IMG/VR virus record: IMGVR_UViG_3300044712_000401
Span: 1 to 38,413 of that record
Strand: one strand, 5' to 3'
Origin: a virus
DNA length: 38,413 nt
The notes below the pieces were generated by a model. That model was not told the DNA's origin. It did no database searches and saw nothing but the letters and a program-made list of their open reading frames with translations. Numbering within the stretch: position 1 is the stretch's first letter; the number at the start of each line of letters is the position of its first letter. The position numbers and the translations under genes were made by a program. This document shows positions 2,293-38,062 of this stretch, piece by piece.

Positions 2293-4308
2293 TTACTCAA
2301 GCTCAGTCTTAAGTTTCGCAATAACAGATTGCATTGCTTTTGACCCAGGCTTTAGGTCCGACGCCGCAAGGAAAAGTCTTTTTGCCCTCGAACTTCGCAT
2401 AAGTTCGTCTTTTTTGGCTTCAATTACAGCGCCAAACTCAGGATCAACCGACGCCTGAATTTTGTTAAACCCATCGTTCGTCCACTTCGGAATCCCCCTA
2501 ATTGGCGTCTCGACTCTTGGATATGGCCCATCTTTGTACGACCCATCTGACTCGCGATCGATCTCACTTGAGTTGCTAGCAACGTCGCCATTTGATTTAA
2601 CGACGGTGCGAAGTGGTGAACGGCGAACGCTTGCGGCACTAGCCGCCGCGCGCCCAGTTCCAGATGGAGCTTGCGGAATTACTGATGATGCTCCTTTGCC
2701 GACCACTTGGCCTGCTCTTGAGATCGCACGACCGGCCTCGATGCCATACTTGAGTGCGGCAGGAGATGTAGCAGCGGTTCCAATTATCCCCCCGACAGGG
2801 CCGCCAACAATTGTACCCACACCGCCGCCAGTCATCATTCGAGCAACCGCTTTCCCGGTCGAATCAACCGGCAAAAGCTGCGTGTCATTGAAGCTGCGAG
2901 CTGCCGCAAGATTCTCGGCTTGATGAACAGCGTTGCCGCCTGTAATTTCATCGACGGACTGAAGGTATTTAAGGTTTCTAGGATTGCTACCAGATCCGGC
3001 AGCCAGAAGCGCTGACTCAGATCGCCCGGCGCGAATCAGGTTTTTATTAATTCCTTCCTCGATTATATGAAGGCGGCGGAGCTGATCGTTTGCTGCCTTA
3101 ATCTCTGGTGCAGCTTCATTGAGAAGCCTCCGTGCCTCGGCAGCTGCACCCTTTGATGCTTTTGCTGCCAGGTCGCCTTTTGGGAATATGCGCGAGCCAT
3201 TGTTGTAGCTTGGCTTTGCGATCGCCTGTAGCTCTTCTTTAATGTCATTGAGTGTATTGAGGCCAACACGACCAGCATCATCTATCGAGCCAGCGACCAG
3301 GTCGCGCAAGTTTTTTAGTTCGTTTATTTCATCAGGTCGAAATCGAGCCGTTACATCTCCGACAGATGAAATTACATCGTCGATCTTTTGAAGCATTGGT
3401 CTGGCATCAACCGCCGTATTGGCGTATTTCTCACTTTTTAGAGCCGCTCCAATCTGTCCACCAAGCTTTTGACGCGCTACTTGAACATCACGAGAAATGC
3501 TCTCTCGAACAGTATCTGCGGCATCAGAGATATTACCGCCAGATTCGGATATCATCTTTTTTACTTCGTCAGCGCGAGTGGCATAGGTCGAAATCTCTTT
3601 TTCGCTTACGCCAGTCAGTCCGCTCGCAACCTTCTTTGCACCTGACTTAATCCCGCTCCATACGGCTGGAGCGACTTTGCTTGCAGCATTAAAGCCTGTC
3701 TGGACCGCTGCGCCCGTTAGCGCACCAGTGCCGATCATTTGAAGACCTTCGCCGACAGAATCAGCATGCCCAAGCGCCTGAGACCCGCCCGTAATAGCGC
3801 CGATTTTCGCAGCCTGCCCAGCGCCTTTAAGTAGGCCTCCGCCAGCCTGAAGTCCTTTCGCGGCCATAAGTGGAGCGGTCATCACAGCGCCACCGATATC
3901 TCCAGCCATTACTAGTCCAGGACGGCGAGTTTGAAGATCCGCCTCTTCTGTCTGCGCCTCGCCTCTTGCCTCTTTGAATCCTGAGGTGAATGCGCCGGCA
4001 GCGCCCTTAAGCTTATCTGTGAACGATTCATTCGTGTCGCGCTCAAGGCGCCCAATCGTCTTACCGACTGCGCCACCAACGCCAGCTACGAACGGGCGCG
4101 CGCCAAAGAGAACGCCGCGTTCCGCAGCTACCGCAACATCCTTAAGCCCATCGTTCTCTTGACTCTGCGCTGGCGCTCTCAGCGGCTCCCAAGCATCCTG
4201 TCCGACCTTTTGATAAATCGTGCCGTCTTTCGCCGCCCGTGTAACAGGAGCCCACTCATCCGGCCCGACTTGCTTATAGAACGTTCCGTCTTTGGCTTGT
4301 CTTTCCAT
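2293..4308 (-). CDS. Large ejection / internal virion protein (gp16/gp20 position)
   Basis: A 671-residue protein in the place where P22-like phages encode their last DNA-ejection proteins. The start is the ATG overlapping the previous gene's stop (TAATG); a GTG 12 nt upstream would overlap that gene more and has no ribosome site. Residues 5-21 and 26-42 are a tandem repeat (AKDGTFYKQVGPDEW, then AKDGTIYQKVGQDAW). Gly/Ala-rich hydrophobic stretches near residues 130-205 and again around 490-540 are the kind seen in proteins that enter membranes during DNA delivery, separated by helical and coiled regions. No enzyme motif is visible. The call rests on gene order, size and composition. Confidence 0.65.
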   Translation of the reverse strand: MERQAKDGTFYKQVGPDEWAPVTRAAKDGTIYQKVGQDAWEPLRAPAQSQENDGLKDVAVAAERGVLFGARPFVAGVGGAVGKTIGRLERDTNESFTDKLKGAAGAFTSGFKEARGEAQTEEADLQTRRPGLVMAGDIGGAVMTAPLMAAKGLQAGGGLLKGAGQAAKIGAITGGSQALGHADSVGEGLQMIGTGALTGAAVQTGFNAASKVAPAVWSGIKSGAKKVASGLTGVSEKEISTYATRADEVKKMISESGGNISDAADTVRESISRDVQVARQKLGGQIGAALKSEKYANTAVDARPMLQKIDDVISSVGDVTARFRPDEINELKNLRDLVAGSIDDAGRVGLNTLNDIKEELQAIAKPSYNNGSRIFPKGDLAAKASKGAAAEARRLLNEAAPEIKAANDQLRRLHIIEEGINKNLIRAGRSESALLAAGSGSNPRNLKYLQSVDEITGGNAVHQAENLAAARSFNDTQLLPVDSTGKAVARMMTGGGVGTIVGGPVGGIIGTAATSPAALKYGIEAGRAISRAGQVVGKGASSVIPQAPSGTGRAAASAASVRRSPLRTVVKSNGDVASNSSEIDRESDGSYKDGPYPRVETPIRGIPKWTNDGFNKIQASVDPEFGAVIEAKKDELMRSSRAKRLFLAASDLKPGSKAMQSVIAKLKTELE

Positions 4309-5408
4309 TAGTCGGCCCACTCAATTTGATTGGTTTTGAACGTCTGCCTTGTGCCAGCTTGAGCTTCACTCATACCCCAGCCGCCACCTGCGCCAGCACC
4401 TCGGCCTGGTTGTCTCGGAGGCGTTTGAGCGACGCCTGATCGCCCACCCTGAAAGCCATACAGCGAGCCCCCCATGCGCTCAAAGTAAGAACCTTTCGCG
4501 TCCTTAGCATCTGCCTTTGCGGATAGATCCCCAACAAGGCGCTCAAGGCGCGCGACGTTGTTCTCTGTCGAGTCAGCCTCGTTCCATGTGTTCTTGATGA
4601 TTCTCTCGCCCTCTTTCTCTGTGAACTGAGCGCCAAGGATTGCGCGGAGGCTATTCATCACTGTTGATTGAACGTCGGCGCGAGCCCTAAGAACCGATTC
4701 CGAAGTCATGCGGTCCGGGAATGCCCCAGTAAGACCGCCAGTCGTTACAGATCCATTCTTAAGTCCGCCGATCACATTTTGAAGCTTATTAATCTCCGAG
4801 CGCGCTGTATTTGCACCGCCAGAAGTCCACTCGTTATGATCTTTCGCAAACTCGCGATCAAAAGTCTTCTGGCCCTCTGTCAATTTCATGTCAGCGGAGC
4901 CCGACTTGCCGCTTGCTTCAGCGTTCATCTTGCTAGCTTCAGACTGAAGCTTTTTGATCTGAGCCTCCTGAACCTTGCGATCCATAGCCTCTTTCTGTTG
5001 AGCCTGTTGATGCTTCTGATAATAGAAGTTCGCCATCGGCTGAGCTGCTTCGAACGATTCAGGCAGCTCATTTGGATTTGCCATCCCAGCGCTGATTTGG
5101 CCGTCTCGCCACTTCGCATACTCCGCTTGTCGCGCCTGAGGATCATTCATCGAGAAGAGTCCGCCAGCGGTTTCACCGAGCGACTGATAAAGCCCAGAGC
5201 GACGCTTTCTCTGAAGGTCCGCCTGCTCTGAATCAAACGCCGTCTGCTGCCTTTGAGCCGCCTGCTGTTGCAACGCAAACTGCTCTTCTTGCATCTTGCG
5301 CTGCTTGATATTGTTCGCTATCTCAAGGCCCTGCTGAATGCCTTGGCCAAGAGCCGCAAGCCCCGTTCCACCGCGAAAGTTCTGATACATGCTTGTGTCA
5401 AATGGCAT
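4308..5408 (-). CDS. Ejection protein with Gln-rich coil (source of the decoy-like N-terminus)
   Basis: A 366-residue virion protein between the gp7-like gene and the large ejection gene. Residues 4-32 begin DTSMY and contain GG, GL, QGI, QG and IAN at fixed spacing. This block recurs in the exported 156-aa protein at 35899-36369. Residues 33-75 are a Gln-rich coiled coil. Residues about 200-310 contain the conserved phage block LRAILGAQFTEKEGERI, typical of phage structural/DNA-injection proteins. The C-terminus is Gly/Ala/Gln rich. It is coupled to its neighbours by short spacing and a stop-start overlap. It probably travels in the capsid and leaves with the DNA. Confidence 0.7.
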   Translation of the reverse strand: MPFDTSMYQNFRGGTGLAALGQGIQQGLEIANNIKQRKMQEEQFALQQQAAQRQQTAFDSEQADLQRKRRSGLYQSLGETAGGLFSMNDPQARQAEYAKWRDGQISAGMANPNELPESFEAAQPMANFYYQKHQQAQQKEAMDRKVQEAQIKKLQSEASKMNAEASGKSGSADMKLTEGQKTFDREFAKDHNEWTSGGANTARSEINKLQNVIGGLKNGSVTTGGLTGAFPDRMTSESVLRARADVQSTVMNSLRAILGAQFTEKEGERIIKNTWNEADSTENNVARLERLVGDLSAKADAKDAKGSYFERMGGSLYGFQGGRSGVAQTPPRQPGRGAGAGGGWGMSEAQAGTRQTFKTNQIEWAD

Positions 5409-8090: not shown

Positions 8091-8385
8091 AAGTGATCAC
8101 CTCTAGCCAGCCTGATGCTGGAGCTGATGAAAACGTGATTTTGTTTCCGCTCACAGAGTACGCGGCTTTCTTTTGATAGCTTCCGTTAACGAATGCGAGG
8201 GTATGGTTTTTATCTTTCGGCTCACAAGCAAGAGTAAACTCGGTCAGAGCACCGTTTGTCGCAAACTCTTTAACGATGATTTCCTGGCGATTGATAAGAG
8301 CGCGAATAAACAGTTCCCAGGCCTTGGTGAAAAATCCACCTTCAATAACCGGTGTCTTAAATGGTGGATCAAGCCTCGTTGCCAT
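8080..8385 (-). CDS. Small beta-rich tail accessory protein
   Basis: A 101-residue protein between the tail hub and a fibre. The pattern TEFTLACEP...HTLAFVNGSYQ...ITFSSAPASG is the compact beta domain common in fibre stalks, and a related block occurs in the adjacent fibre (residues about 105-170). The N-terminal helix (KAWELFIRALINRQEI) may bind the tail. It starts in a TAATG overlap with the gp10-like gene. It may be a fibre adaptor or the counterpart of the needle; neither is proven. Confidence 0.6.
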   Translation of the reverse strand: MATRLDPPFKTPVIEGGFFTKAWELFIRALINRQEIIVKEFATNGALTEFTLACEPKDKNHTLAFVNGSYQKKAAYSVSGNKITFSSAPASGWLEVITYGR

Positions 8386-9932
8386 TAGCTTTGCTCCTGT
8401 TCAACGTCGATCTCAGCACCAATCAAAACAATCTTGACCTTGTCAGTGATTCGCGTGCGATACACACGGTCTCGGCTAATCCCGAGTCGTCGCCACAACG
8501 CTCGACGCTTAAATTGACCGATTTTTCCGATGCTCGCCCAGTGTTCGTTTGACCACGTGTGACCGCCATCGTCGGACCAATCAAGGATGCACTGTGGATC
8601 TGATCCTTGATCGTTTCCATCAAGTCCCACGCCAGTTTCCATATCGAGTTGAATAGACTTATGCCGAAGGCGCTTTAGGCCAGCGGTCACATGAGGAGCC
8701 GTGCGGAGACGCACAATCTCTGTGTCATCGTCGGTGTAGAAATTCTGATTCATTTGATATAGATTGCCGTTTTCAAAGTCACCGACGAGATGAATCCCAC
8801 CAAGAATTGTCGGCGCGAATGAGTAAACGTTGGCACGATGACGTTTGAACTCACCGCTATCAAGACGAGCGCGTTCATGCCAGAGACCTGTTGAAATATC
8901 AAATACCCAGGTGCCCTCATCAAAATTCAACACATAGAAGAAATGTCCGCCCTCTTGATAAGTATAGGCGACTGCATTCTCGGGGTTTGCATACGAGTTA
9001 ATCGCGAATTCAACCGCGTGTGTGCTGACACGCTTTGGTTGATAGCCTTGAGTCATATATACGATGCCGCGGCCCTCTTTATTACGACCTAGCCAAACGA
9101 TTGAGCCAGCGATTGTGGCTGGGCTATATCGAGCAAAGCATCCGATCTCAAGAAAGCCGGATGCCGCACGAATAAACGGTGCATTCATATCTCCGCTTGA
9201 TTGCCAAATCTCTGTCGTGCGTTCACCAAAGAGCCAAAGATCACGATAGTTATCTATTACTGCGAGAAGATTGTCAGGATCGCCCTCAGCTGTAAAAAAC
9301 GAGAGGGGATCAACTGTCGGCGAGTCTAGGTCAGAGACGTAGAACTTTCCTGAATAGAGCTTATTATAGATTCGATAGCCGTCGATCAGTGCGACATGCG
9401 AGCCGCCATACGATCCAACATATGGTTCAAGCGCAAATGCGCCTTTGTACCCGGCGGTCGAGAATGATTGGAACGTCTCTGTGATTGTTCCTGAGTTGTT
9501 GTATCGTCGCCAGAGGTATTCCTGATCGCCCCCGACAAACACGACCATTTCCTCTGTGAAAGGTGATCCGCTCACCATTTCTTGCGCGCCAATAGTCGAC
9601 GTTGCGCGCACAACGGGCGTGTTTACGTTCATTGCTGTCGCATACAGCGTTGAGGACCATGTTCCACTCACCGTGTTGTACGACACTTTATAGAGACGGT
9701 TTTTACTGACAACGAGGATAATCCCAGAAGGTGTTACGTGAACACACCGAATCGGACCCTCGCCAATGCTAATCAAAGTTTTGAGTCCTGGTGTTCCTGA
9801 GAGATGAACGACCTCGCCCTCTTTTCCAGTGCCGGCCTCGTTAATCTCAGGATAAAGATTCACCGACCGCTGACAATCAACGTTTACACTCTGGAGCGTG
9901 TAGCTTGGTCCGATGAATCCTTTGAAGCGCAT
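8385..9932 (-). CDS. Packaged-DNA stabilisation / tail hub protein (P22 gp10-like)
   Basis: A 515-residue protein that starts with the family hallmark GFIGPSYTLQSVNVDCQRSV and NLYPE, followed by LSGTPGL. Beta-propeller-like repeats with Trp/Gly follow. P22 gp10 (472 aa) forms the hub below the portal and gp4 ring, closes the DNA-filled head and carries the spikes. Gene order (gp4-like, then this) matches P22. Confidence 0.88.
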   Translation of the reverse strand: MRFKGFIGPSYTLQSVNVDCQRSVNLYPEINEAGTGKEGEVVHLSGTPGLKTLISIGEGPIRCVHVTPSGIILVVSKNRLYKVSYNTVSGTWSSTLYATAMNVNTPVVRATSTIGAQEMVSGSPFTEEMVVFVGGDQEYLWRRYNNSGTITETFQSFSTAGYKGAFALEPYVGSYGGSHVALIDGYRIYNKLYSGKFYVSDLDSPTVDPLSFFTAEGDPDNLLAVIDNYRDLWLFGERTTEIWQSSGDMNAPFIRAASGFLEIGCFARYSPATIAGSIVWLGRNKEGRGIVYMTQGYQPKRVSTHAVEFAINSYANPENAVAYTYQEGGHFFYVLNFDEGTWVFDISTGLWHERARLDSGEFKRHRANVYSFAPTILGGIHLVGDFENGNLYQMNQNFYTDDDTEIVRLRTAPHVTAGLKRLRHKSIQLDMETGVGLDGNDQGSDPQCILDWSDDGGHTWSNEHWASIGKIGQFKRRALWRRLGISRDRVYRTRITDKVKIVLIGAEIDVEQEQS

Positions 9933-12663: not shown

Positions 12664-13629
12664 CTATGCTTGCTTGGCTCTTATCTGTTCTCTTCGCAGG
12701 CGCTCATATTCGGCTTGAGAAAGGCTTGGGTCATAAATCGACTTCTTACCTTCGCTCTTAGAGCCAACGGGTTTCGGTGGAGGCGGTGCCTTCGTAGTCT
12801 TTGGAGCAGCGGTTTTCCTGGCTTCGATTTTCTGCTCAAGCTTCACGATCTCCTTGAATTGGAGAATTGGCGGAAGCTCCGCGATCTCTTCAGCCAGGTC
12901 GGGATTCTTTCCAAGCTCATAAAGGAGTGCAGGGCCGTGATCGCTAAGCAAGATTGCCTGCTCAACCGACTGATCAACCTCAATACCAGAGAGCGCCTTC
13001 ATGGCCTCGGCATAGTCTTTATGATCCTTAGCGAAATCTTTGGCTCGCTTCTCAAAAGTTTTTGAGGCTTTCTCGGCTTCGCTTTCTGATTTCGAACCGC
13101 CAAGCATCTTTTTAATCTCGTCAAGAGCTGGCCCTAGAGCCTTCTTTGCGCCGTACTCAATAGATGCCCTTTGAAATTCTTCATAGGATTCAAAGTCATT
13201 GGGATTTGGCTCCTTGTCCCCTTCGGGCGCGCTCTTGCGCTCAGCCGCTTCAGGTTTTTGTCCTTTTGCGGCCATCGCTTGTTCTTTCCAGTATTCGAGC
13301 TCCTTGCTCATGTTCTGGTTTTTCTTCACAAGCTTCGAGATGCGCTTTCCGAATCCCTTTTGCTCCTTCTCACGAGGTTCGCCGCTTTCGTCTTTCGCAT
13401 CGTCTTCTGATGCTTCCGACTCCTGCTCTTCACCTTCACCGTTTTCGCCTTGGTCTTCGCTTTCTTCGTTTACAGTATTTTGAGCTTCCGATTTCTCACC
13501 CGATGCTTCTTGAGCGTCGGTTTCACTCTCATTGGTTTGAGGCGCGGGTTTTTCTTGATTTCCGTAAACGTCATCTGCCGAGTAGACCTTGATCGCCTGA
13601 TTCTCGAGTGTTTCTGACATGTCACTCAC
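12664..13629 (-). CDS. Capsid scaffolding protein
   Basis: A 321-residue, very acidic protein (residues 30-90 are Glu/Ser/Asp/Gln rich). Coiled helices follow, with a basic C-terminus (LRREQIRAKQA) of the kind that binds coat subunits in P22. Residues 144-176 (NDFESYEEFQRASIEY and so on to KKML) are a conserved scaffold block, and a copy of it occurs in the exported 156-aa protein at 35899-36369. It is coupled to the portal gene by an ATGA overlap. The order portal, scaffold, coat is as in P22. Confidence 0.85.
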   Translation of the reverse strand: MSDMSETLENQAIKVYSADDVYGNQEKPAPQTNESETDAQEASGEKSEAQNTVNEESEDQGENGEGEEQESEASEDDAKDESGEPREKEQKGFGKRISKLVKKNQNMSKELEYWKEQAMAAKGQKPEAAERKSAPEGDKEPNPNDFESYEEFQRASIEYGAKKALGPALDEIKKMLGGSKSESEAEKASKTFEKRAKDFAKDHKDYAEAMKALSGIEVDQSVEQAILLSDHGPALLYELGKNPDLAEEIAELPPILQFKEIVKLEQKIEARKTAAPKTTKAPPPPKPVGSKSEGKKSIYDPSLSQAEYERLRREQIRAKQA

Positions 13630-25536: not shown

Positions 25537-25794
25537 TTAACTTGCTTTGCCGTTCAGAAGTTCAGGCACTTCGGCCTTCATTCGCTCAGCCCGTGCTTTC
25601 CTCTCGCTCTCGCGTTCAATTTCGAGCATCCTTCTTGCCGAGTGCCTGACCGGTGGTGCGCGCAACTTTGTGTAGTAAGAAAGCTGAGCATACAGATCCG
25701 CTCGCTCAATCTTTAGTTCTGCAATCTCGATGTCTTTTGCGAACATTGCGTCTCTAAGAGATTTTGAGATTTGATTGTCGAGTGAGTCGGTCAC
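25537..25794 (-). CDS. Small coiled-coil protein
   Basis: An 85-residue charged helical protein (FAKDIEIAELKIERADLYAQ, then ARRMLEIERESERKARAERM). Its start overlaps the stop of the methylase gene (ATGA). Unknown function. Confidence 0.55.
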   Translation of the reverse strand: MTDSLDNQISKSLRDAMFAKDIEIAELKIERADLYAQLSYYTKLRAPPVRHSARRMLEIERESERKARAERMKAEVPELLNGKAS

Positions 25795-26795
25795 GCGCCA
25801 AGCTCCAGCTGAATTTCGGATGGGTTGCCTAAATGAATCATCCGCGCGGCCGCATTCGCGTATACGCGCTCAGTAAACACCTTGCGCTTTTGTGACTTCA
25901 TGTTTGATGCTAGCTTTTGGATTTTCTGCTTTTCAAAGACAACGCTAAATCGTTCGTCTCTTATCTCAAACTCGGATATAAACACCGGAGTTTTGTGATT
26001 CGCAGCCCAATCGAAGAACTTCGCATAATCAAACTCGCGCAGGTATTTTTCTGTTCCTTGATATGGGATGTCGCAATAGATGATGCTATTTGGCTCTATC
26101 CTTGCCTGCTCATAGCTCAGCGACGAGATTGTTAGCCGTTCGAGCTGTTGGAACCGTTCGAGCTGTTCGAGCTGTTGGAGCCGTTCGAGCTGTTCGAGCT
26201 GTTGGAGCCGTTCGAGCCGTTCGAGCTGTTCGAGCCGTTCGAGCTGTTGGAGCTGTTGGAGCTGTTGGAGATCGCCTCGCTCGCCAAGCTTCTCTCGTGC
26301 CTTGGATCGAACAAAAAGACGGCGCGCTTTAATATCTGACAAATTATCCGGCCACGAATCATGGTCGAGAAGCCGAGCCGCCATGTCGTCAAAAATGCCA
26401 AAGACAACGGCGTTATGAAGGCTTCGCTTTTTATCTTCGATCTCTTTTCCAAAAAGGTAATCGCGCTGATTATTCCCGAAGCTCCAAATCGTCCTGGTGT
26501 ATGCGCATGAGTCTTTGTTCTTAAAAAAGCCCTCTCGAGATACCCACTCTGGTTTAAATCTTGAGTAGTTAAACCAACCGCGTGTCGCCTTTCGAATTAG
26601 CGCAGCAATGTCGGACTCAATTTCGTTGTAATGAACGCGACTCCATTTGTGCTGGAACTTCTCCAAGGCACAGTGGCTCACACAACCGCCTCCGCCAAAC
26701 AGGTCATAAAAGTTTTCAGCCGATGGAAGCTCTTCGAGTATAGCCTCAACAATGCTCGACTTTGAGCCCATGTATGGCATTCCGTATTTTCCCAT
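25791..26795 (-). CDS. D12-class DNA adenine-N6 methylase with Leu/Gln/Glu repeat insert
   Basis: A 334-residue enzyme that methylates adenine in DNA with S-adenosylmethionine. It has the YMGSKSSIV start (cofactor motif X), DLFGGGGCVSH (motif I) and IIYCDIPYQGT (motif IV, where the family usually has DPPY; here Ile replaces the first Pro). Residues about 180-222 are an uninterrupted row of LQQ/LER/LEQ triplets encoded by 9-bp repeats, inserted between the target-recognition part and motif IV. Probable roles are protection from restriction or control of phage DNA. Overlap with its neighbours suggests a single operon. Recognition sequence unknown. Confidence 0.85.
   Translation of the reverse strand: MGKYGMPYMGSKSSIVEAILEELPSAENFYDLFGGGGCVSHCALEKFQHKWSRVHYNEIESDIAALIRKATRGWFNYSRFKPEWVSREGFFKNKDSCAYTRTIWSFGNNQRDYLFGKEIEDKKRSLHNAVVFGIFDDMAARLLDHDSWPDNLSDIKARRLFVRSKAREKLGERGDLQQLQQLQQLERLEQLERLERLQQLEQLERLQQLEQLERFQQLERLTISSLSYEQARIEPNSIIYCDIPYQGTEKYLREFDYAKFFDWAANHKTPVFISEFEIRDERFSVVFEKQKIQKLASNMKSQKRKVFTERVYANAAARMIHLGNPSEIQLELGA
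26139..26270. repeat. 9-bp tandem repeat inside the methylase gene
   Basis: About 14.7 units of TTSGAGCYG (TTCGAGCTG, TTGGAGCCG and relatives). The unit is three codons, so changes in copy number alter protein length without frameshift. Confidence 0.85.
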
Positions 26796-34360: not shown

Positions 34361-34591
34361 TCAGGAGGCTTCGTTGCCCTCGGTCACGGGGAACAGTTCG
34401 TCAAGAGGATAGCCGGTAACTCTACACACACGCTCCATAGTCGCTGGGTGTGGAGTGCATTCATAATCTCCTCGGGCGGCTGCATTCAGCCATCCGCGAG
34501 AGATCATGGCCTCTTTGCATAAGCGATCTCGTGAACCGCGCCCCTCGGCGCCCAACCATGCTCTCAGTTTTCGTGCGTCAACTCGTCTCAT
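34361..34591 (-). CDS. Cro-like helix-turn-helix protein
   Basis: A 76-residue XRE-type DNA-binding protein: the helix-turn-helix lies in RDRLCKEAMISRGWLNAAAR, followed by HPATMERVCRVTGYPLDELF. First leftward gene, divergent from the repressor, with a 94-nt control region between. It probably acts as the lytic-direction regulator of the switch. No good ribosome site is visible; the start is the only ATG available. Confidence 0.7.
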   Translation of the reverse strand: MRRVDARKLRAWLGAEGRGSRDRLCKEAMISRGWLNAAARGDYECTPHPATMERVCRVTGYPLDELFPVTEGNEAS

Positions 34592-34685: not shown

Positions 34686-35228
34686 GTGAAAACGATTGAG
34701 GAAATTCTAGCTTTTAATGTGTATCGACTAAGGAAGTCAGAGGGACTTTCTCAAGGCGAATTAGCGTCAAAAGCAAAAGTTTCGTTACACACCGTTTTCA
34801 GGATTGAAGCGAAAAAGGCGGGGACTAAGACCTCAAGCGTTGAGGCCATAGCCAAAGCCCTTGGCGTGACCAAAGAAGACCTCTACGCACGCCCCACGAC
34901 TGACCTAGGCGAACTCGGCAGGCGCGCCCTCGACACCAAGCCCGAACCTCCGAAACTAAGCCCAGATGAGGCAAAAGAGTTTCTTTTGTCTACCATACAG
35001 GCGGGAGCTGAGGCGCTGTTTAATGAGAACAAAGCACTCCGCGCCGAGATCGAAGCTCTCAAGTCACAGCTCAATTCGCGCAATCACTTAATGGACGCTT
35101 TCGAAAAGGCAGAACCACACCGGCGCGAGATGGCATTAAAGGTGCTTGCTCTCTCGGATGAGAAGGTCGAGGCGGTTCTGGCGGGTTTGCGTCGATCTCA
35201 TCCAAAATCAAAATCAGGTAATCCTTAA
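34686..35228 (+). CDS. Prophage repressor (XRE helix-turn-helix, no peptidase domain)
   Basis: A 180-residue protein. Residues 8-65 are an XRE domain: NVYRLRKSEGLSQGELASKA, VSLHTVFRIE, then TSSVEAIAKALGVTKEDLYA. The C-terminal half is helical (a coiled coil near ENKALRAEIEALKSQLNSRN), without the Ser/Lys peptidase S24 domain of LexA-cleavable repressors. An in-frame stop precedes the GTG by one codon, so translation must start there, without a visible ribosome site. The transcript may be leaderless, like lambda cI from its maintenance promoter. Confidence 0.8.
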   Translation: MKTIEEILAFNVYRLRKSEGLSQGELASKAKVSLHTVFRIEAKKAGTKTSSVEAIAKALGVTKEDLYARPTTDLGELGRRALDTKPEPPKLSPDEAKEFLLSTIQAGAEALFNENKALRAEIEALKSQLNSRNHLMDAFEKAEPHRREMALKVLALSDEKVEAVLAGLRRSHPKSKSGNP

Positions 35229-35552
35229 TTTTCTTTTTCAACTCTGAGTTCATGTCCGTACCTCGCAGCACTGCGATACGTGTCGGACTTTCGTCATTGG
35301 ACTCAATAAGGCGAATCTTAATATGACGGATGTCAATAACTTAAGTATATTTATCAAGCTTAAATCGACACATGTAAACTCAGATGCTTGAACGAGCTCT
35401 TAACCTCGTGTGTATCGATATGAGAATCGAAAGTTAATTTTTCGATGATCGAACTTTACTTAGCCCATCGCTCAACTGCTTAAGTTTTATTTACCATCTT
35501 GAATCGACTCGAACAGCGACCGAACAAGACTCACAACCCAAAAGGAGTCTTC
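35229..35552. other. Long gap between the repressor and the first exported cargo gene
   Basis: There is no rightward gene in 324 nt. Inverted repeats include ATCGAAA-GTTAATT-TTTCGAT (about 35426-35446) and TATCGATA nearby, possible operators for the cargo genes. A leftward frame (35253 to 35071) with GAGGT six bases before its ATG overlaps the repressor's 3' end; it is listed only as a possibility. Confidence 0.4.
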
Positions 35553-35819
35553 ATGTTGAAACTGCTTCCCGTGATTCTCTCATTATCACTATCAGCAATA
35601 GCGTTCGGTAAGGATGTTTACGTGCAGGGCCATGTTCGAAAAGACGGAACCTATGTGCAGCCCCATTTTAGAACGGCTCCAGACAGCAATCCCTACAACA
35701 ACTATTCGACGCAAGGAAACACAAATCCGTACACCGGAAAGAAAGGCACCGTTAACCCGTACAACACTCACACGCACCAGAACTCATTAGATTTCGGGAA
35801 TTCGAATATTGAGGAATGA
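35553..35819 (+). CDS. Small exported protein, candidate lysogenic-conversion gene
   Basis: An 88-residue protein starting at ATG 35553 after AAAAGGAG; a longer frame has no ribosome site. Signal peptide MLKLLPVILSLSLSAIAFG, then a mature part of aromatic/Asn/Gly-rich pattern (DVYVQGHVRKDGTYVQPHFR and three NPY units: NPYNNYS, NPYTGKKGT, NPYNTH). Similar small periplasmic proteins of unknown role are common in proteobacterial chromosomes. Position beside the repressor suggests expression in the lysogen. Confidence 0.75.
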   Translation: MLKLLPVILSLSLSAIAFGKDVYVQGHVRKDGTYVQPHFRTAPDSNPYNNYSTQGNTNPYTGKKGTVNPYNTHTHQNSLDFGNSNIEE

Positions 35820-35826
35820 AAAACAG

Positions 35827-35851
35827 CGAGGCAGGGGTTCGATCTCTGCCT
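35827..35851 (+). terminator. Rho-independent terminator after the first cargo gene
   Basis: GAGGCAG and CTGCCTC (7 perfect pairs) close over 11 nt and are followed by ATTTTG. The T-run is short, so some read-through into the 35899 gene is possible. Confidence 0.6.
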
Positions 35852-35898
35852 CATTTTGCAGAATCGGCGGCTGAACTCTATACTTCACGAGGCACCAA

Positions 35899-36369
35899 AT
35901 GAAATTCATTGCAGTTATCATCACATTGGTTTCCGCGTCTGCGCATGCTCAATTAGATACCAGCATGTATCGCAATTATCAGGGAGGGAACGGATTGAAC
36001 TCTCTTAACCAGGGCATTGTTCAAGGTGCCGCTATCGCGAACGAAAACAAACGCCTACAGATAGAACAAGAGCGCCTCGAACTGGAGCGCCAAGCTTTAA
36101 GCGCTCAAACCAAACGAAGCCATTCTGGAAAAACTAAAGTTCAAGACACTGTCGCAGATGAGGTTCCAAATGCTGGAGACTACCAATCATACGAAGACTA
36201 TTACGGCGCACTAACAAGATACAATATGAACAAGATCCTAGCTCCAGCTCTTGATGACATTAGGAATGCGGTCTTGCATCAAATGGAAAAGAGAATCGAG
36301 ACGCTAACTCAACAGCTCAACAAATGCGCGAACAATAACGCTGCAACAAAAAAAGCAAAAGAGGAATAA
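35899..36369 (+). CDS. Exported chimera of virion-protein segments (decoy-like)
   Basis: A 156-residue protein. Signal peptide residues 1-17 (cleavage after AHA). Residues 20-48 match residues 4-32 of the ejection protein at 4308-5408: 19 of 29 identical, no gaps (DTSMY, N, GG, GL, L, QGI, QG, IAN). Residues 49-72 are a coiled coil. Residues 93-125 match residues 144-176 of the scaffold: 13 of 33 identical with further D/E and F/Y swaps (D.SYE, A, Y, K, L.PALD.I). The C-terminal 30 residues are a coiled coil. GAGGC precedes the ATG. It lies with the conversion gene beside the repressor and opposes the lysis cassette. Export of capsid-internal sequences suggests a periplasmic decoy against incoming phage (inference). 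Confidence 0.82.
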   Translation: MKFIAVIITLVSASAHAQLDTSMYRNYQGGNGLNSLNQGIVQGAAIANENKRLQIEQERLELERQALSAQTKRSHSGKTKVQDTVADEVPNAGDYQSYEDYYGALTRYNMNKILAPALDDIRNAVLHQMEKRIETLTQQLNKCANNNAATKKAKEE

Positions 36370-36406: not shown

Positions 36407-36829
36407 TCACTCAACCAGGTGGACTTTCATCTGTTTTCGCAACTCGCGCCAGCCCTTGACCTCAATGTGTGGGAGCTCGAAAAATTCAGCGCCCTTTGAA
36501 CCATACCACTCGATCCAATCAGGTAGCGCTGGCGCGAGTATATTATTGAACCACTCACGTGGGTAAATCGTGTTCGCCTGTGGAATGAGCGCAAATAGGT
36601 CCATTGCGCAATTCCAATTGTGGGCCGATTCTCCAAAGTGCGCTCTTGAGGCACCTGACTTAAAAGCCGCTTCCTGTTCGTCTCGCCCTCGTCCTGCACA
36701 TGAAACATGAGCCTCAGGATACTCCTCCTGAAAATCCTCGAACCACTCACGAAGATCTTCGTTAAAGCCAGAATATCGATCGAGGATCTCTTGGCACTTC
36801 GGGCAATGTCCGGAGTTTTCGTGCTTCAT
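36407..36829 (-). CDS. Endolysin, M15-type peptidoglycan peptidase
   Basis: A 140-residue zinc peptidase. The VanY/M15 signature is present: CAGRGRDEQEAAFKSGASRA, then SAHNWNCAMDL (His70 and Asp77 as zinc ligands) and LPHIEV (His121). It cuts peptide cross-links of the cell wall at lysis. There is no signal peptide, so it needs a holin or other route. The N-terminal CPKC pair may bind a second metal. It is the last gene of the late transcript as drawn. Confidence 0.85.
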   Translation of the reverse strand: MKHENSGHCPKCQEILDRYSGFNEDLREWFEDFQEEYPEAHVSCAGRGRDEQEAAFKSGASRAHFGESAHNWNCAMDLFALIPQANTIYPREWFNNILAPALPDWIEWYGSKGAEFFELPHIEVKGWRELRKQMKVHLVE

Positions 36830-36836
36830 TGGTTAC

Positions 36837-37559
36837 TCACTTGCAGAAGCTCAGTGCCTTAGTGTGCGATTTAATCGACTCAGACTTATCGTATTTTCCG
36901 CCGGGCGATAAGACGGCCCAATAAAGACCACTCTCACCCTTTGGAATGAGGATCTTTCCTTTGCGATCAATTTGCCGAGCCATGATCGCGAGACCGAGAT
37001 GGAGGTTCTTTTCAGGCACTTGCAAATCCCCGTATGTGTAACCAAATGGCATCTTGTATGACACTTGATCGACGACTGACATTTGCAGAAGACCAACGCT
37101 CCATGTGTCTTTGTCATTCGCGGTGCCGACGTCTTGAGAGCCATCGAATGGGTTCCAACCGCACTCGTAGTATGAGGTCCACACGATCATCTCGGCGAAG
37201 ACGTTGATTTTCTGACTTCGTGTGAGGCTCGCATATTTCGGGCAAAACGCAGATGCATCGGAAGCCTTGTTAAACGAATCAAAGCGCGTGTCGATTTCAG
37301 ACCATAGTGCCTTAGACCAAGCGGCGCGATCAGGATGGTTCTTCTCCCAAGACAATGTCGGTACGCTTTCCGGTGCAGGAGTTGGAGTCGCCGCGGGCAT
37401 AGGCATAGGCGTAGGTGTCGGCGTTGCACTTGCTGAAACGGTAGACGGATGATCCGCCGTTGGCACTGTCGTGCATGAAGTAAGCGCAATCACTACGTAA
37501 ATTGATACGATAAGGCTAATCAGCAACCACGCGATGGATGATGTATTTAGCTTCTTCAT
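36837..37559 (-). CDS. Lipoprotein with lytic-transglycosylase-like domain
   Basis: A 240-residue protein starting at 37559, after GGCGGG in the end of the previous gene. Signal sequence with lipobox LTSC (lipidated Cys29), a Thr/Pro/Ala-rich linker (residues about 30-70), then a lysozyme-like domain: TSYYECGWNPFDGSQ (catalytic Glu candidate) and WSVGLLQMSVVDQ, the SxGLxQ motif of Slt-type enzymes. A membrane-anchored peptidoglycan enzyme next to an M15 endolysin gives the phage two wall-degrading activities. Confidence 0.75.
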   Translation of the reverse strand: MKKLNTSSIAWLLISLIVSIYVVIALTSCTTVPTADHPSTVSASATPTPTPMPMPAATPTPAPESVPTLSWEKNHPDRAAWSKALWSEIDTRFDSFNKASDASAFCPKYASLTRSQKINVFAEMIVWTSYYECGWNPFDGSQDVGTANDKDTWSVGLLQMSVVDQVSYKMPFGYTYGDLQVPEKNLHLGLAIMARQIDRKGKILIPKGESGLYWAVLSPGGKYDKSESIKSHTKALSFCK

Positions 37560-37560
37560 C

Positions 37561-37896
37561 TCACTGCCCGCCTGATTTCTGAGTCGCATAGTCACGAAGC
37601 GTTTTCATATAAACCACAATAGCTCCCCAATCATCAGGACTGAAAGCGATGAACTTATCAGCTTTATCGAGCGGAACCTTATCAGTCGCATTGGCTCTAA
37701 CAAACGGCACGAGTTCATGAAACTCAACTTGCTCTGGTTGAGTGAGCTTTTGCGTAGGCGCACAGATGAGCTGATGCCTTGGGTAATCGATTGTGCAAAG
37801 CTTGACGTTCGGTTTATCTGGCACTCCAGCACAACCAGAGAGAGCCACCAAAGCAAGAGCGCTAAAAGCTATTACCAGCAAGGTCAGTTGTCGCAT
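37561..37896 (-). CDS. Small lipoprotein, o-spanin candidate
   Basis: A 111-residue protein; the ATG at 37896 has AAGGA eight bases upstream, whereas the longer frame lacks a signal sequence at its start. Lipobox LSGC (Cys22), two further Cys (VKLCTIDYPRHQLICAP) and a mostly helical C-terminal half. It overlaps the preceding single-span protein gene by 35 nt, an arrangement typical of inner/outer-membrane spanin pairs. The body is longer and less Pro-rich than classical o-spanins, so the call stays tentative. Confidence 0.5.
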   Translation of the reverse strand: MRQLTLLVIAFSALALVALSGCAGVPDKPNVKLCTIDYPRHQLICAPTQKLTQPEQVEFHELVPFVRANATDKVPLDKADKFIAFSPDDWGAIVVYMKTLRDYATQKSGGQ

Positions 37897-38062
37897 CTTC
37901 ACGTTCCTTTTCTGTTTCAGAGTTTTTGACGTGATCAATCTTGTCTTTCGCGTCTCGCTCAATCTCATCGCGGCGCTCCTGATCGGCTTGTCTTTGCTTT
38001 AGCCATTTGGCGAAAAACCCGGCAAGCCAGTCGAGAATCGCCGCAATGATCGTGCTCACCAT
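37862..38062 (-). CDS. Single-span coiled-coil protein, i-spanin or holin candidate
   Basis: A 66-residue protein: an N-terminal membrane segment (TIIAAILDWLAGFFAKWL) followed by a strongly charged coiled coil (KQRQADQERRDEIERDAKDK). The topology fits an inner-membrane spanin partner of the overlapping lipoprotein. It is short for that class and could instead act as a one-span holin. It starts in a TAATG overlap with the upstream gene. Confidence 0.5.
   Translation of the reverse strand: MVSTIIAAILDWLAGFFAKWLKQRQADQERRDEIERDAKDKIDHVKNSETEKEREDATTDLAGNSF

What the first reader, a model, noticed from the sequence alone, without database searches (positions are those of the whole stretch)
35899..36369. 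Exported protein assembled from pieces of the phage's own ejection and scaffold proteins
After a signal peptide, residues 20-48 repeat the N-terminus of the ejection protein at 4308-5408 (19 of 29 identical, ungapped) and residues 93-125 repeat scaffold residues 144-176 (13 of 33 identical, ungapped). Both parents act inside the capsid, yet this product is sent to the periplasm from a locus beside the repressor. A lysogen-expressed decoy that binds the partners of an incoming ejection protein, and so blocks DNA entry by related phages, would be a new kind of superinfection exclusion. The matches are seen; the function is inferred.
Basis: partly seen in the sequence, partly recalled or inferred. 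Interest (0 to 1): 0.92.

Follow-up and report, generated by a model that had tools for sequence, protein, structure and literature searches.

The report
Exported mimic of phage ejection protein
A temperate virus of bacteria carries, beside its lysogeny switch, a gene for an exported protein built from the tip of its own DNA-injection protein and a piece of its own head-scaffold protein; it may jam the injection machinery of related viruses, but nobody has tested this.

Summary
The 156-aa product has a Sec-type signal peptide (residues 1-17). Residues 18-67 match the extreme N-terminus of the phage's second ejection protein, and residues 51-144 match the middle of its scaffold. Profiles built without it recover it at E 8.7e-5 and 3.1e-9 among 19,461 ORFs. 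Together the two parents cover nearly the whole mature protein. The predicted cut (AHA/QL) leaves the same free N-terminus (QLDTSMY) as the Met-processed ejection protein (PFDTSMY), within a motif conserved in this ejection-protein family. In the ejection-like part silent sites are randomised while residues are kept, so it is neither a recent copy nor decaying debris. The gene lies with a second small exported gene downstream of the repressor and converges on the lysis genes, as superinfection-exclusion genes often do. No relative was found in about 80 related records, and none of 1,386 other signal-peptide-like ORFs in 260 phage sets has this design. Best explanation (about 50%): a lysogen-made periplasmic decoy that interferes with incoming ejection proteins. 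Exported exclusion proteins acting on the injection machinery are known (SieA, Ltp, Glo); one derived from virion proteins was not found in the literature searched. Function, expression and host remain untested.

The parts
35899..36369 (+). Exported two-part protein B (156 aa), the finding
   Evidence: ORF; translation P0001; preceded by GAGG about 7 nt before ATG (sequence)
35899..35949 (+). Signal peptide, residues 1-17, MKFIAVIITLVSASAHA; predicted cut AHA/QL
   Evidence: hydropathy and AXA rule, own scan; no SignalP available. An alternative cut after A15 is possible
35950..36099 (+). Ejection-protein-like segment, residues 18-67 (core DTSMYRNYQGGNGLNSLNQGIVQGAAIAN, residues 20-48)
36049..36330 (+). 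Scaffold-like segment, residues 51-144, including the family motif PNxxDYxSYEDYxxALTRY (about residues 90-108)
5322..5408 (-). N-terminal 29 codons of the parent ejection protein (gene 4308-5408 -), signature M[PA]xD[ST]SIYxN; model: disordered residues 1-16, then a long helix
4308..5408 (-). Parent 1: second of three ejection-type proteins, 366 aa, at the position of P22 gp20 (between a phrog_598 DNA-ejection protein and a 675-aa protein)
   Evidence: assignment by position and conservation, no solved-structure match
13072..13350 (-). Segment of the scaffold gene (residues about 94-186) mirrored in protein B
12664..13629 (-). Parent 2: head scaffolding protein, 321 aa, between portal and coat
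   Evidence: phrog_8865 E 6.1e-42
35553..35819 (+). Exported protein A, 88 aa, signal peptide, phrog_29674
   Evidence: in other phages it also often follows a repressor-type gene
35828..35852 (+). 11-bp hairpin followed by AUUUUGC between A and B (terminator-like)
   Evidence: -17.5 kcal/mol, z -2.5
34686..35228 (+). HTH repressor-type regulator upstream of A and B; a small ORF at 34361-34591 (-), divergent from it, is HTH-like by eye only
   Evidence: regulator only; the small ORF was not tested against any library
36407..37968 (-). Lysis-type genes (VanY-like peptidase, SLT transglycosylase lipoprotein, Rz1-like lipoprotein) convergent with B

Best explanation
Protein B is a lysogeny-locus, Sec-exported decoy. 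Shown by sequence: a signal peptide is fused to the N-terminal tail of the phage's gp20-position ejection protein, followed by the central helical segment of its scaffold. Inferred: in a lysogen B is secreted and trimmed so that its free end is the ejection protein's own N-terminus. When a related phage infects, the phage proteins that reach the periplasm are the ejection proteins (and the tail tip). B meets them in two ways: as a truncated ejection subunit it competes for whatever the N-terminal tail binds (another ejection protein in the conduit), and its scaffold-derived coiled coil offers the surface on which ejection proteins dock in the procapsid and can present several tails at once. 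The conduit misassembles and DNA does not enter: superinfection exclusion by a dominant-negative mimic.
For: Two-parent make-up covering nearly the whole mature protein. Predicted cut aligns with the parental N-terminus. The copied parts contain conserved motifs of each parent family, DxSIYxN and PxPDDFExxEEYxxALTDW. The ejection-like tail is modelled as disordered and followed by helix in both parent and mimic, as expected of a docking peptide. In the ejection part silent sites are at chance (9 of 25 identical codons, 10.3 expected) while residues are kept. Own proteins are the closest of 7 ejection and 9 scaffold orthologues. Same strand downstream of the repressor, away from the late operon; the nearest relative G024 carries a lipoprotein in the same slot; companion A often follows repressor-type genes in other phages. 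Known exclusion proteins act at this step and place: SieA on gp16/gp20 (PMC10883804), Ltp on the tape measure protein from the lysogeny module and Glo as a soluble periplasmic protein (PMC3952083).
Against: No homologue and no second example of the design. Expression in the lysogen is inferred from position only; a terminator-like hairpin separates B from A and no clear promoter was found. Signal-peptide prediction is by rule, not by SignalP. No binding data; which ejection protein the N-terminal motif contacts is unknown. In the scaffold segment identical codons exceed chance (10 of 13, 5.1 expected), so saturation is shown only for the ejection part.
Confidence: 0.5

Rival explanations
1. 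Lysogenic-conversion protein with a periplasmic role unrelated to phage exclusion. The phage reused two handy helical modules from its own genome, and the likeness has no functional target in the parents.
For: Locus shared with A, a widespread exported family of unknown role; no direct evidence of exclusion.
Against: What is kept is the exact N-terminal signature of the ejection family with a matching free end, and a conserved scaffold motif; a generic helical module would not need either.
Confidence: 0.22
2. Cytoplasmic regulator of head assembly: the hydrophobic N-terminus is not cleaved or not used, and B competes for scaffold and ejection-protein contacts in procapsids, limiting assembly of this phage or of rivals.
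For: Both parents work together in the procapsid (PMC12005531); assembly-interfering defence is known in general (PMC11364771, title and abstract only).
Against: A clear Sec-type signal whose cut falls at the parental N-terminus; the gene is not in the late operon; neighbour A is also exported.
Confidence: 0.12
3. Periplasmic helper rather than blocker: B primes or stabilises the conduit of its own kind of phage.
For: Same parts would serve; self sequence is the closest match.
Against: A lysogen gains nothing from easier entry of related phage; location beside the repressor argues for a prophage function.
Confidence: 0.06
4. Debris of recombination: a chance fusion without function.
For: Singleton; GC of the gene (44%) is lower than that of most genes.
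Against: Intact ORF with signal peptide and ribosome site; in the ejection part residues kept although silent sites are randomised.
Confidence: 0.06
5. Independent resemblance of coiled coils (chance or composition).
For: Both parents and B are helical and Q/E/K-rich.
Against: Shuffles with the same composition never reach the real scores (ejection 22.1 against 15.1 bits; scaffold 36.8 against 10.1); of all ORFs in the window only the two parents ring.
Confidence: 0.04

Closest known systems
SieA of Salmonella phage P22 (PMC10883804)
   Same: Prophage protein that blocks DNA entry by short-tailed relatives by interfering with gp20/gp16 ejection proteins
   Different: [quoted passage not shown] B is predicted soluble and made of ejection and scaffold sequence
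Ltp of Streptococcus phage TP-J34 (PMC3952083)
   Same: Exported, encoded in the lysogeny module downstream of the CI-type repressor, expressed in the prophage, acts on the protein that guides DNA through the envelope (tape measure protein)
   Different: Lipoprotein of a Gram-positive host with repeat domains; not described there as a copy of its target
Glo of Vibrio phage K139 (cited in PMC3952083; listed as periplasmic protein and immunity gene in PMC4870250)
   Same: Soluble periplasmic superinfection-exclusion protein of a prophage
   Different: Sequence not compared here; no virion origin stated in the passages read
Gag-derived restriction factors of mammals, Fv1 and enJSRV Gag (PMC6361761)
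   Same: Principle: a virus-derived structural protein fragment restricts related viruses
   Different: Intracellular, eukaryotic, retroviral; not homologous
Podovirus ejection protein at the gp20 position, and scaffold phrog_8865
   Same: Sequence of the two halves
   Different: B lacks the body of both proteins (it has about 15% of the ejection protein and about 30% of the scaffold) and is exported

Membership tests
gp20-position ejection proteins of P22-like podoviruses | N-terminal signature M[PA]xD[ST]SIYxN at the extreme N-terminus | tested here: met
   Met only after signal-peptide removal (QLDTSMYRN)
gp20-position ejection proteins of P22-like podoviruses | Full body (about 320-390 aa) and place in the late operon | tested here: not met
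   Only the first about 50 residues are shared; gene outside the late operon
Scaffolding protein phrog_8865 | Full-length family match including the C-terminal part | tested here: not met
   Only profile positions 79-172 of 297; own profile 87-183
Exported prophage superinfection-exclusion proteins (Ltp, Glo, SieA kind) | Export or membrane targeting | tested here: met
   Predicted signal peptide by rule only
Exported prophage superinfection-exclusion proteins (Ltp, Glo, SieA kind) | Encoded in the lysogeny module near the repressor | tested here: met
   Repressor 34686-35228, A 35553-35819, B 35899-36369, all +
Exported prophage superinfection-exclusion proteins (Ltp, Glo, SieA kind) | Sequence relation to a described exclusion or defence protein | tested here: not met
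   No Pfam, NCBIfam or PADLOC family above curated threshold
Exported prophage superinfection-exclusion proteins (Ltp, Glo, SieA kind) | Expressed in the lysogen and blocks DNA entry of related phages | not testable with these tools
   Needs an infection assay

The most novel reading that the evidence does not exclude
A prophage makes an exported dominant-negative copy of its own DNA-injection machinery: the free N-terminal tail of an ejection protein on a scaffold-derived coiled coil, secreted to the periplasm to jam the conduit of related phages. No virion-derived periplasmic decoy of this kind was found in the literature searched.
Probability: 0.45. Interest if true: 0.88.

Novelty: new variant of a known kind. 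Interest (0 to 1): 0.72.

Why it matters
If true, phages turn fragments of their own virion into exported inhibitors, a prokaryotic counterpart of Gag-derived restriction factors. It would also point to a short N-terminal peptide of ejection proteins and a scaffold segment as the contacts worth testing: how podovirus ejection proteins find each other in the periplasm and dock on the scaffold is poorly known, and B names candidate residues (DxSIYxN; PxPDDFExxEEYxxALTDW).

Tried and rejected
Homologue hunt for B: exact-peptide scans of viral and genome contigs, tblastn in phages and plasmids, 80 related records: only the parents' homologues. A screen of 1,386 signal-peptide-like ORFs in 260 phage sets against their own genomes: the few other pairs look like hydrophobic or neighbouring ORFs and were not followed. 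Structures: ejection protein model of moderate confidence with no significant PDB fold match and no PDB sequence match; B as single sequence gives two long helices, not searched further. Weak hits discounted: Pfam phage_tail_N below cutoff, glutamyl-tRNA reductase. A sigma-70-like site just before B (35855-35884) would leave almost no leader and sits at background frequency; not used as evidence. Host: not identified; the only genome contigs with a related coat protein are distant (39% and 34%).

Full report
What the window is. The window is a 38.4-kb virus record, a temperate P22-type podovirus by gene content: terminase, portal, scaffold (phrog_8865), coat, head-tail proteins, three ejection-type proteins, integrase, antirepressor, an HTH repressor-type gene and lysis-type genes (integrase and terminase by eye and by conservation in relatives). 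Its host is unknown. The closest record found, G024 (L075/L076), shares TerL at 74%, portal at 69% and the gene at 8385-9932 at 73%.

Observation. ORF 35899-36369 encodes MKFIAVIITLVSASAHA / QLDTSMYRNYQGGNG... Both ungapped matches exist with the stated counts (19 of 29 and 13 of 33). A six-frame search of the whole window rings only for itself, the ejection gene and the scaffold gene. The same two are the best of all ORFs by Smith-Waterman, 138 and 102 against 43 for the next. Profiles made from homologues of the parents, with the finding left out, recover it from 19,461 ORFs at E 8.7e-5 and 3.1e-9. Same-composition shuffles do not come near. The scaffold half reaches from residue 51 to 144, so the two parents explain nearly the whole mature protein.

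The N-terminus. The ejection homologues of widely diverged podoviruses begin with M[PA]xD[ST]SIYxN. The protein's AXA signal-peptidase site lies exactly where the parental protein begins: the alignment puts A17 on the parental initiator Met, so the mature chain QLDTSMY corresponds to PFDTSMY. The tail is modelled as disordered and followed by a long helix in the parent, and B is modelled the same way (disordered to residue 28, helices 32-72 and 98-155, single sequence). This is what a linear docking peptide would look like; that reading is inference.

Age and selection. In the ejection part only 9 of 25 identical residues use the same codon, against 10.3 expected by chance, and third positions agree at 33-38%; nonsynonymous divergence is moderate. 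So the fusion is not recent, and its residues were kept. In the shorter scaffold stretch identical codons are above chance (10 of 13 against 5.1), so this argument holds for the ejection part only. Among orthologues, the phage's own ejection protein and own scaffold are the closest to B, consistent with origin in, or coevolution with, this lineage.

Surroundings. The repressor-type gene, exported protein A (phrog_29674) and B are read on the same strand; the late operon and lysis genes are on the other and end 37 bp from B. A terminator-like hairpin lies between A and B. In G024 the slot after the repressor holds a different exported protein, a lipoprotein. Homologues of A in other phages often lie downstream of HTH or S24 repressor-type genes and next to other exported proteins. 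This is the usual place for lysogenic-conversion and exclusion genes, for example ltp of TP-J34 (PMC3952083). Expression was not shown.

Singularity. No relative of B was found in the phage, plasmid, viral-contig or genome-contig searches or in 80 related records, nor a second signal-peptide protein made of its phage's head proteins in 260 phage sets. The exact-peptide scans reach close relatives only, and the locus is mosaic even between the nearest relatives, so this limits the claim more than it refutes it.

Mechanism. Podovirus ejection proteins assemble in the periplasm into the conduit for DNA; SieA of P22 blocks infection there and escape mutations lie in gp16 and gp20 (PMC10883804). 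In the P22 procapsid the scaffold column is proposed as the docking site for ejection proteins (PMC12005531). The scaffold itself does not enter a cell with the infecting phage, so an exported scaffold piece would have the ejection proteins as its plausible partners. A secreted molecule that is half ejection-protein tail and half scaffold is thus most simply read as a trap for incoming ejection proteins. The anatomy is shown; secretion is predicted; binding and exclusion are inferred. I put this at about 50%.

Novelty. Exported prophage proteins that stop DNA entry are known, also soluble periplasmic ones (Glo). Making one from fragments of the phage's own virion proteins was not found in the papers searched; the library covers open-access papers only. 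I file it as a new variant of a known kind, with the reservation that membership in the exclusion class rests on location and export, not on a tested function.

Noticed in passing
window 25791-26795 (-): DNA-methylase-like ORF (by eye) carrying an in-frame run of LQQLEQLERL-type repeats around 26100-26330; could be a variable linker or a phase-variable tract.
   Followed up: no
window 35071-35271 (-) and L076:1238-1438 (-): In both this phage and its nearest relative a 66-aa ORF lies antisense over the 3' end of the repressor gene, each with a basic FRK stretch near its end; may be a small antisense gene or a by-product of the overlap.
   Followed up: no
window 35553-35819 (+): Exported protein A (phrog_29674) belongs to a family found in 28 viral contigs, often downstream of repressor-type genes and beside other signal-peptide proteins; a candidate lysogenic-conversion family of unknown role.
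   Followed up: partly
L076:1661-2257 (+): Nearest relative G024 carries a 198-aa cysteine-rich lipoprotein in the slot where this phage has A and B.
   Followed up: partly
N-termini of ejection proteins, e.g. window 5322-5408 (-), L007, L010, L062, L171, L350: A short N-terminal signature M[PA]xD[ST]SIYxN is shared by gp20-position ejection proteins that are otherwise 20-47% identical; its role is unknown.
   Followed up: partly
window 36407-36829 (-): Weakly VanY-like peptidase with an N-terminal CPKC pair, possibly a metal-binding endolysin variant.
   Followed up: no
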